Shown piece by piece: positions 58,783 through 63,348 of a DNA stretch of 64,000 bases. How positions within the stretch are numbered: position 1 is the first letter of the stretch; the number at the start of each line of letters is the position of its first letter. Origin of the DNA: Apostichopus japonicus (taxonomy: Eukaryota; Echinodermata; Holothuroidea; Aspidochirotida; Stichopodidae); NCBI RefSeq assembly GCF_037975245.1, contig NC_092573.1, forward strand, positions 15,860,265 through 15,924,264. Direction: 5' to 3'. Under the pieces are notes generated by a model. It saw only the letters and a program-made list of their open reading frames with translations. It was not told where the DNA came from and searched no databases. A program made the position numbers and the translations under genes.

Positions 58783-61700
58783 TTATTGCATCACCGCCCT
58801 TTCATCTCCTTCAATGATGGGGGGCGACCTGCGGATGTACTCTGGCTGACTCTTCTTATTCACGACCCCTTCATTGATAACAACTTCAACAATGTCAGAT
58901 TCTGGAACTTCAAACATGGACTCCAACAGAATGTTCTCCTGAAATAGCAAGAACCAAAAATTTTCAACACTTGTTAGATTGGAAAAAAATTCAGACAGGA
59001 ACTTAAAGCTTAACTGAACTTCACTGTTGCTGAACACAAAATAAAGAAATCAAATTAGTAAATAATAAAAATAAATAAAAAAGTAAATAATAGTTTCACT
59101 GAATATTCAGTAACAAGTGCGAGCTATGTCACTGCATATGTAGTGCCACAGATTATCATTGGTACCTTTTGATAGAACTGTTCTGGTCTCTTGCCTTGTC
59201 TATTGTCATCTTTTAGGATTGTTGGTATATGTTTATTGGTAACTTTATAGTTTCTTGTTAACTGTTTTATTCAAGCATTCAATTACCCTTTGTGGGGTTC
59301 AATAAAGTTGTCTTATCTTACCTTAACTAAATGTGGAGGACAGTATGAAGAAAAATAGGTCAATGTTTTTTATCTTCACAAAATATTGGCCCTTGGCATG
59401 TCAACACAATCTTGTTAGGCATTACTAACACTGTTTCTGCACTGAAATTTCATTATCATTTTTAGCTGTTAAATCCATCCCTCATCCTTTTAGCAATCTC
59501 TTCAACATAAATCCATTCTTTCCTTTATCTTCTTTCACACTGGTAACTACAATTCAGTTGGTACCTATCCTGAATATTTAAATGTGTTTTTTGAGGCCAT
59601 CGCGGCTTGTGTTCCTGTTTGTGTTTCTTCTGAGGAGGTGACCAAATGATATGTGTAACTAGACTAGGTAGTCTAGTATCTTTGACTGTTGAATCTCTGA
59701 CACTAACAGTGGTGTGGCATAGTAACCTACACTCACAGAAGAGGTATTTAATACTCTGTGGAATGTTATCCTTCATGGTTAAGTATATATTTAACCATGA
59801 AGGATATAATAAACTTGTCAATTATAGAAGAAAATATAAGTTTGCCAGTACACAGTGTCCCAACAGTATTTACAAAGAAGTGTTTCCGTGTTCTCCCCTT
59901 ATACACATCAACATCCTGGTTATGCCAGTACTATTTGTCAGATACCATTCAAGCAGTGACATCATACAGCCAGTGACAGTTGGAGATTCTGGTGATACAC
60001 CCAAATCTAAGGCACGGATGGGTAGTCAGTATCTTAGTTACATCAACTCAGATGAAATTGTTTAGAGGAATTGTTTTTTCCTTCAAATAACCATCTTTAC
60101 TTGACCATTGAATCAATCTTACCATAATAGATCTTAATCCCCTTGCACCAGTCTTCCTCTCCAAGGCTTGTCTAGCGATACTCCTTACTGCATCATCAGT
60201 GACTGTCAGTTGACACTGGTAATTCAACAAATAAATGATACATTGTGAGTACTCAAAAATGCTCATGAAAAGAACCACATATTCATCGTCCAAGATATCA
60301 GCATTATATTCTAAATTAAGCAAACATACAACACATTGATCTCAGTTAATGACAGGGATATAAAGTAATTAAGTCTTATTAAAAGAAACATAGATAGTCA
60401 GGAGTACTGGAGTAGCCACAGGTGGAAGGAGCAGCAGCAGGGTAGACACCCTACAGAGTTTGAGATAATGATCTGACATACGGTTGAATACAATCCATGT
60501 CAATGTAAACAACATTGCTTTCAGCAAATTGAATTTTGCTGAAGGATTCCTCAATCTTCCTGCCTTCCATAAAACAAGAGAAGGCATTAGTTGATGACTC
60601 ATCACTTTCCTCTCACTGTCTGTATATAGCAATGTCTGAATAAGAATCCCAGAATCATAACATGCACCGTATTCCTGGATTGGAGGCTAGTTTTTACGCT
60701 CATGATTTATTTCCCACAGCCTGAAGAATTTTATCAACAAACATCCAGAAACAATGAAGACAAATTAACAGCTGCAAAGATTTAAGACTCTCTTAAACCT
60801 TGGTTATTCAGAACTAGTAACAGCAGCTCAAACTTAGTGAGTGAGCATAGTGATTATGATTAATGCATCTCCAACCTTAATATATAGAATAATGCTAATG
60901 AATCGAATGTCAAGGATTCAACCTTCACTAATTCATATACATTTCACAGCTGGGACAATTTTTTACCACTTTAAAAACTATGAACGAAACGTAATAAATT
61001 ACAAAACCTTACGATGATGCACCACTTCCTGAAGACCAAAAGAGAGGAAAGAACTTCAAATCACAAAGACTAGTACTCACACTATCCATTTTAAATAAAG
61101 CCTCATACTGAGGAATGAGGGCATTCTTTGGCTCGGTCAAGATCCGCACAAGCATGTCTTCATCCAATGAACCGAGACTGACATTTACTGGAAATCGTCC
61201 CACAAATTCAGGAATCATGCCAAACTCAATAAGGTCACGAGCTTCGGACAAACGTAGTAGAGCATCCCTCTCTTCGTTATCTTCCTTGACACTAGAACCC
61301 TCTGACTGGTGGGTGAGGTCATCGTTTGTGGCAGCTCTTCGACCCTGGCTCTGACTAGCTGGGGCACCAAATCCAAGGTACTAAGAACAAAACACCCAAA
61401 TGGTTAACAACTAATAACACAATCTTAGCTGTTCATGTAAAACAAGATGTTCTATTTTATTCTTCACAACTTGTTTTAAGAATGCTGATGTACTAAGAAC
61501 AAACACCCAAATGGTTAACAACTAATAACACAATCTTAGCTGTTCATGTACAACAAGATGTTCTATTTTATTCTTCACAACTTGTTTTAAGAATGCTGAT
61601 GTACTAAGAACAAACACCCAAATGGTTAACAACTAATAACACAATCTTAGCTGTTCATGTACAACAAGATGTTCTATTTTATTCTTCACAACTTGTTTTA

Positions 61701-63348
61701 AGAATGCTGATGTACTAAGAACAAACACCCAAATGGTTAACAACTAATAACACAATCTTAGCTGTTCATGTACAACAAGATGTTCTATTTTATTCTTCAC
61801 AACTTGTTTTAAGAATGCTGATGTACTAAGAACAAACACCCAAATGGTTAACAACTAACAACACAATCTTAGCTGTTCATGTACAACAAGATGTTCTATT
61901 TTATTCTTCACAACTTGTTTTAAGAATGCTGATGTACTAAGAACAAACACCCAAATGGTTAACAACTAATAACACAATCTTAGCTGTTCATGTACAACAA
62001 GATGTTCTATTTTATTCTTCACAACTTGTTTTAGAATGCTGATGTTACTATATAATGCCATGTAGGAGGTGAAAAGTGTAACAAATAGATTCCAGTCACC
62101 ACTAAGATTGAAAAGTGAGTTATAGCCTTTGAGAATGTCCTAACTGACTCAGTAGAATTGCAAATGTACCATGCTTTTTTCAAACAGTATTAAGTTTACT
62201 AAGGGATGAGACCTGGTCCCAGTTGTGTGAAAAGCCCCCATTAAGCCTCTTCTAATCAACTTGAAGTGCTCCTTTTCCATTTTGGTAATTAAAATGTGCC
62301 TTCTTAATTACATTGTTCTTAATTCTCATCAAAAGGGCACATTTTAAAGAACTAATTATATGAAGAAAGTGCTGTTTTGTTGAAAAAAAACATTAAGATA
62401 CTGGAATTTTAGAACAGATTAATAAATCATTGCAAGTACTGTAACAAGAAGCAGCTTTCTTGTGAAAAGAAACTGTTCAATATCTGTTTGCCATTATCGG
62501 CAATGAGGCTAAATTTTACCGATACCCATATGCCACCGATATTGCAAATATTAGCGGCATATCAGTATCCCAAACGATTAGTGGCGCAACACTTATATTA
62601 ATTAACAAACTATTCTCCTTGCCAACCTCTGCCCCCACCCCACAAAACGTTAGAACAAAAGTCTGTGCTTTTGGTGGCTGTAAAACTGTAACCAGCATTA
62701 ATGTCTTTAATTATCCTTCCACTCTCCAGGCAATATTGATTAGTTGTTGTTACAAATATAACCTTTCCATTTATCTGTATACATATTAATGATGCTGGTA
62801 GTGTGCACCGTGAAAAACAACACAATGGATGCTATACCTTTAGAATAAAAAAATATGTACCTCGAGCATCTGTTTATAAATTGGTCAATGAACATTAGGT
62901 GTATATGCTGATGTGCTGCTTACACAATTACAGCTTTGCATTATGGATAATGACAAATGGAATGTAACCAAAGAAATGAAATATAACCAGCAGGTTTGAT
63001 ATTCTCTTCCACATCATTTCTACGAGACAATTGTAGTCAGATATGAAACACTTCCGCCTGCAGCATATAAAACTAGTTTTTGACATATGCATACCTTTTC
63101 TTGCTTCCTTCTCTTAGTGATTCGATCCAACCCATTGAAAGCTCCACTAGCCACAAAGAGGATGTTAGTGGTATCAACTGGCACACTCTCTCCTCTCAAT
63201 TTACGTGAGCTTCTTTCAGGGACATTAACGATGGTCCCTTCTAGTAGTTTCAGTAGGCCTTGCTGGACGCCCTCGCCGCCAACATCTCTCAGTTGATGGA
63301 TGCCAGGGACACATCCGATTTTGTCAACTTCGTCCAAGAACACGATGC
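58783..63348 (-). CDS. CLPX: Mitochondrial ATP-dependent unfoldase ClpX, C-terminal half (5' end outside window)
   Basis: Coding exons on the minus strand: 63095-63348, 61081-61380, 60123-60215, 58783-58938, all GT-AG and in phase. The visible protein begins one residue into the Walker B segment ([11 protein letters not shown]), then [23 protein letters not shown], the sensor-1 region [18 protein letters not shown], a variable acidic linker, [11 protein letters not shown] with the arginine finger, [15 protein letters not shown], the sensor-2 region [13 protein letters not shown], and the C-terminal small domain [17 protein letters not shown] ending at TAA. CLPX forms AAA+ hexamers in the mitochondrial matrix that unfold substrates for ClpP and also activates ALA synthase. 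The Zn-binding domain and Walker A lie beyond the right edge. The exon 61081-61380 acceptor borders a 111-bp array that copies it. Confidence 0.97.
59160..59325 (+). mobile_element. LINE-type 3' tail relic in CLPX intron
   Basis: The block ttaccctttgtggggttcaataaag followed by ttgtcttatctt repeats looks like the end of CR1/L2-like LINEs. No coding part is visible. Confidence 0.4.
59767..59806. repeat. Perfect inverted repeat in CLPX last intron
   Basis: The 15-16-bp arms ATCCTTCATGGTTAA and its reverse complement surround an 8-nt AT loop. Confidence 0.85.
61378..62045. repeat. 111-bp minisatellite copying a CLPX splice acceptor, six copies
   Basis: GTACTAAGAAC starts at 61378, 61490, 61601, 61712, 61823 and 61934 (spacing 112, then 111 each). 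In the sense (minus) direction each unit carries a pyrimidine-rich GTTTGTTCTTAG and TAC, the same 3' splice site used by the exon at 61380, plus an AATAAA. Copies are almost identical, so the array is young or homogenised. Confidence 0.95.

What the first reader, a model, noticed from the sequence alone, without database searches (positions are those of the whole stretch)
61378..62045. Array of five decoy 3' splice sites in front of a CLPX exon
A 111-bp unit repeats the native acceptor (pyrimidine tract, AG and TAC, the first three exon bases) so that five near-identical acceptors lie upstream in the intron, each also with an AATAAA in the sense direction. Only the native one leads into coding sequence. 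The spliceosome must choose the last of six similar sites, or the array may permit cryptic exons or intronic polyadenylation.
Basis: seen in the sequence. Interest (0 to 1): 0.65.

Follow-up and report, generated by a model that had tools for sequence, protein, structure and literature searches.

The report
Minisatellite repeating a CLPX splice acceptor
A 111-base stretch of intron that ends at the start of a CLPX exon has been copied in tandem six times in an echinoderm, so five copies of the exon's splice signal sit upstream of the real one; this is probably a neutral repeat of a kind ("mirage" minisatellites) already described in amphioxus.

Summary
Positions 61378-62050 are a tandem array of about 6.1 copies of a 111-bp unit, 98-100% identical. 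On the minus strand each unit carries a branch-point-like TTAAC, a T-rich tract, TTCTTAG and TAC, the first three bases of a CLPX exon (61380-61081). That gives one native and five extra acceptors, plus six AATAAA. The array occurs only at this locus in the 671-Mb host genome, whose mitochondrial code is that of an echinoderm. The splicing interpretation is weaker. By a generic matrix the native site scores 5.2 and the decoys 3.8, and AG sites as good as the decoys occur about 7 per kb anyway. No unit has a usable donor, so cryptic cassette exons are not supported. A used decoy would give 11 codons and then a stop. RNA folding shows nothing unusual. Minisatellites of this size are common in this genome (8 per 200 kb sampled), so tens of arrays touching an acceptor are expected by chance. 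[quoted passage not shown] Best reading: a largely neutral, boundary-spanning minisatellite with mostly native splicing. No RNA data were available.

The parts
61378..62050 (-). Tandem array, about 6.1 units of 111 bp, spanning the 3' end of the CLPX intron and the first 3 bases of the exon
61081..61380 (-). CLPX coding exon (300 nt, phase 0-0; [10 protein letters not shown]...ALFKMDS)
61381..63094 (-). CLPX intron holding the array (1,714 bp; donor AAG|GTATGC)
61381..61404 (-). Native 3' splice site (accatttgggtgttttgttcttag|TAC), matrix score 5.21
61493..61516 (-). Decoy acceptor 1 (aaccatttgggtgtttgttcttag|TACATC), score 3.84
61604..61627 (-). Decoy acceptor 2, score 3.84
61715..61738 (-). 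Decoy acceptor 3, score 3.84
61826..61849 (-). Decoy acceptor 4, score 3.84
61937..61960 (-). Decoy acceptor 5, score 3.84
61456..61461 (-). AATAAA, repeated also at 61567, 61678, 61789, 61900 and 62011; behind each decoy acceptor it overlaps an in-frame TAA

Best explanation
It is a single-locus minisatellite whose unit happens to contain a complete 3' splice site, because the duplication breakpoint fell three bases inside the exon, at a short sequence shared by both ends (TAGTA, then AC). It grew and was homogenised by unequal exchange or slippage. It is tolerated because the copy next to the exon keeps an intact splice site. Most transcripts should still use that native site, since it has the slightly better pyrimidine tract and the only real exon with a donor behind it. 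Occasional use of a decoy would add 11 codons and a stop, so it would be lost to nonsense-mediated decay. Shown: the array, its uniqueness, its edges and the decoy reading frame. Inferred: the growth mechanism, the neutrality and the native splicing.
For: Array and edges. Only at this locus in the genome. Three units are identical and the few differences lie in the outer copies, the usual pattern of homogenisation in tandem arrays. The two array edges and the inner junctions share TAGTA and then AC. Native site scores above the decoys and decoy-grade sites are common background. No adequate donor in the units. All decoys give [11 protein letters not shown] and a stop. No fold beyond shuffles: z 0.20 for the array, -0.30 to -0.79 for single units. 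Eight arrays of unit 40 bp or more with at least 3 copies in 200 kb of other sampled sequence, four in this window. Amphioxus mirages are reported not to disturb regular splicing (PMC3087553).
Against: No RNA data, no second haplotype and no related species were available. The decoys also duplicate the branch-point context, which the matrix ignores, so they may compete better than their scores suggest. They are transcribed before the native site. The human ABCA7 donor VNTR does affect splicing (PMC5954066), so neutrality cannot be assumed.
Confidence: 0.83

Rival explanations
1. The array works as a splicing damper: a share of transcripts uses a decoy, gains a stop codon and is degraded, so that repeat number sets CLPX output (as repeat length correlates with splicing of ABCA7 in humans).
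For: Complete 3' splice sites in every unit; every decoy leads to a stop after 11 codons; in ABCA7 a donor-containing VNTR gives retention of one unit, and exon 19 skipping correlates with VNTR length (PMC5954066).
Against: Decoys score below the native site and within the intron's background of AG sites; they have no exon of their own; amphioxus mirages show regular splicing (PMC3087553).
Confidence: 0.1
2. Each decoy opens a short alternative last exon: acceptor, 11 codons, a TAA overlapping AATAAA, then cleavage, giving a truncated CLPX that lacks the last part of its AAA+ module.
For: Acceptor, in-frame stop and AATAAA lie within about 40 nt in each decoy unit; a GT-rich stretch follows downstream.
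Against: AATAAA occurs 1.14 times per kb on this strand by chance and was copied with the unit; no 3'-end data; the encoded 11 residues have no known meaning.
Confidence: 0.03
3. The copy number is an assembly artefact: the real locus has one or a different number of units.
For: Three units are identical, so they are hard to count from short reads; the published amphioxus mirage of BflGb6 was aberrantly assembled in the draft genome (PMC3087553).
Against: The outer copies carry their own differences; the contig is 26.8 Mb long, which suggests long reads (inference).
Confidence: 0.04

Closest known systems
Amphioxus 'mirage' minisatellites (Adh3; globins BflGb6 and BflGb9; PMC3087553)
   Same: Minisatellite-like tandem repeats across an intron-exon boundary. 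[quoted passage not shown]
   Different: Here the host is an echinoderm and the gene is CLPX, the exon part of the unit is only 3 bp, and polymorphism and RNA splicing have not been tested.
Human ABCA7 intron 18 VNTR (PMC5954066)
   Same: A locus-specific VNTR whose unit carries the adjoining exon's own splice site; extra copies are potential cryptic sites, and use of one adds one unit and a frameshift.
   Different: The donor side, 25-bp unit, about 12 to about 427 copies, with measured effects on splicing and a disease association.
Intron gain by tandem genomic duplication (reviewed in PMC3443670)
   Same: A tandem duplication copies splice signals.
   Different: That model duplicates exonic AGGT to make a new intron; here an existing acceptor is copied and no unit has a usable donor, so no new intron or exon is formed.

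Membership tests
Mirage minisatellite (amphioxus type) | Tandem repeats spanning an intron-exon boundary, with the splice site inside the unit | tested here: met
   The exon share is only 3 bp (TAC), so it is met narrowly.
Mirage minisatellite (amphioxus type) | The copy next to the exon remains the functional one and the coding frame is intact | tested here: met
   The exon joins in frame to the upstream exon (RRKQEK|YLGFG) and matches human CLPX. This is a sequence test; use of the site in RNA was not tested.
Mirage minisatellite (amphioxus type) | Concerted evolution of central units, edge units excluded | tested here: met
   Three units identical; differences in the outermost copies and one neighbour.
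Mirage minisatellite (amphioxus type) | Length polymorphism or instability | not testable with these tools
   One assembly, one locus.
Mirage minisatellite (amphioxus type) | Regular splicing of the mRNA despite the repeats | not testable with these tools
   No RNA data.
Intron gain by tandem duplication | The duplication supplies both an acceptor and a usable donor | tested here: not met
   Best GT in the array scores 1.25, against 6.6-8.2 for three CLPX donors.
Dispersed satellite or transposon-borne repeat | Unit present at other loci | tested here: not met
   The genome-wide DNA search found only the six copies here (low sensitivity for very diverged copies).

The most novel reading that the evidence does not exclude
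The array is a length-tunable control of CLPX: each extra acceptor diverts part of the transcripts into a stop codon, so repeat-number differences between individuals set the amount of mitochondrial ClpX.
Probability: 0.07. Interest if true: 0.55.

Novelty: new member of a known kind. Interest (0 to 1): 0.22.

Why it matters
Near-identical 3' splice sites with the same branch-point context, differing mainly in the exon that follows and by one T in the tract, are a natural competition experiment on how the spliceosome picks an acceptor. The case also suggests that boundary-spanning minisatellites ('mirages'), reported as possibly general in cephalochordates, occur in an echinoderm too. As a single neutral-looking locus it is of modest interest.

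Tried and rejected
Transposon or dispersed satellite origin: the unit occurs nowhere else in the genome search. A retrocopy of CLPX that would reveal the actual splice: none found with the exon. Conserved or strong RNA structure: no excess over shuffles. Recursive splicing: the decoys read AG|TA, not AG|GT. Cryptic cassette exons: no usable donor in the units. A second boundary-spanning array near other minisatellites in the window or the 200-kb sample: open frames were listed near them but no exon boundary was recognised; this was not a sensitive test. Several literature searches gave nothing useful.

Full report
What is there. On the + strand 61378-62050 is a tandem array with period 111, 6.1 copies and 98% identity; the ungapped repeat search finds the same register. 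The gene runs on the minus strand. The translated exons around it match human mitochondrial CLPX with E = 3.3e-115, and the exon beside the array was found only once in the genome. The exon is 61380-61081 (300 nt, phase 0 at both ends) and the intron is 63094-61381 (1,714 bp, donor AAG|GTATGC). Each unit, read on the minus strand, ends in TGTTAACCATTTGGGTGTTTGTTCTTAG|TAC; TAC is the start of the true exon (TACCTTGGATTT). There are five such sites in front of the native one, with first bases after the AG at 61492, 61603, 61714, 61825 and 61936. There are six AATAAA in the sense direction.

Where it comes from. The window lies at C13:15860265-15924264 of a 671-Mb assembly. Contig C35 (16,099 bp) carries a cox1 that reads sensibly with the echinoderm mitochondrial code (AAA = Asn, ATA = Ile, AGA = Ser) and not with the other codes tried, so the host is most likely an echinoderm; the species was not determined. 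A DNA search of the genome with the unit finds these six copies and nothing else. It is a locus-specific minisatellite, not a dispersed repeat.

How it formed (inference). The exon-side edge reads TTCTTAGTAC|CTTGG, the intron-side edge TATATAGTAAC|ATCAG, and the inner junctions TTCTTAGTAC|ATCAG. The two edges share TAGTA and then AC. A duplication at this short similarity explains why the unit reaches exactly three bases into the exon. Three units are identical and the differences lie in the outermost copies and one neighbour, as expected from unequal exchange.

Can the extra sites act? I scored sites with a generic 3' splice-site matrix entered from general knowledge, not trained on this species. 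Native 5.21, decoys 3.84; other CLPX acceptors 1.34, 7.44 and 9.54; on the minus strand of the window 4.4 AG sites per kb reach the native score and 7.4 per kb the decoy score; seven sites in this intron outside the array score at or above the decoys, among them 8.08 at 63057, 7.81 at 62438 and 6.51 at 62837. Decoy strength is therefore not unusual, although the decoys also share the native branch-point context, which the matrix does not see. The best donor-like GT in the units scores 1.25, against 6.58-8.24 for three CLPX donors, so a decoy cannot readily form a cassette exon. It could only lengthen the true exon by 112 to 556 nt, always reading [11 protein letters not shown] and a stop, which predicts decay of that mRNA. 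That exon sequence and exon definition favour an acceptor backed by a real exon is established knowledge, not tested here. The RNA folds no better than shuffles.

Is it more than expected? In 20 pieces of 10 kb from other chromosomes there are 8 arrays with unit 40 bp or more and at least 3 copies, and 4 in the window. At 40 per Mb the genome holds roughly 27,000. If it has about 150,000 acceptors (assumed), some 60 arrays should end within the first 10 bp of an exon by chance alone, with a range of about 25-120 from the counting error. The array is real, but its position needs no special cause.

What is known. [quoted passage not shown] BflGb6 has six and three units of 150-160 bp in two haplotypes, comprising the 3' end of an intron and the start of the exon; many repeats carry splice signals, RT-PCR suggested regular splicing, and central units are homogenised. 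The CLPX array fits the testable features, with the reservation that its exon share is only 3 bp. The human ABCA7 intron 18 VNTR is the donor-side mirror image: its 25-bp unit begins with the exon's GT, one-unit retention occurs, and exon 19 skipping correlates with repeat length (PMC5954066). An effect on splicing is therefore possible in principle and needs RNA data.

Verdict. A new member of a known kind, most likely neutral, with modest interest as a natural splice-site competition construct.

Noticed in passing
997-3707: Segment whose ends both carry CAGGGGCGGATCCAGG in inverted orientation, flanked by a 98% identical 87-bp direct repeat at 908-994 and 3711-3797; looks like a hAT-type DNA transposon inserted in a short AT-rich tandem tract. 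The family was not tested.
   Followed up: no
57903-58319: 417-bp element with 53-bp terminal inverted repeats, 85% complementary (GGCCCGGTCACACTA...TAGTGTGACCGGGCC), in the CLPX 3' flank; MITE-like.
   Followed up: no
41767-42585, 36851-37045, 37363-37608: Three further locus-type minisatellites (74 bp x 11.1, 49 bp x 4.0, 65 bp x 3.8); no exon boundary recognised in them.
   Followed up: partly
L009-L013 (G000 C29, 31,219 bp): A second mitochondrial contig about twice the length of C35 (16,099 bp), with cox1 pieces in several frames; probably a poorly assembled mitochondrial concatemer.
   Followed up: no
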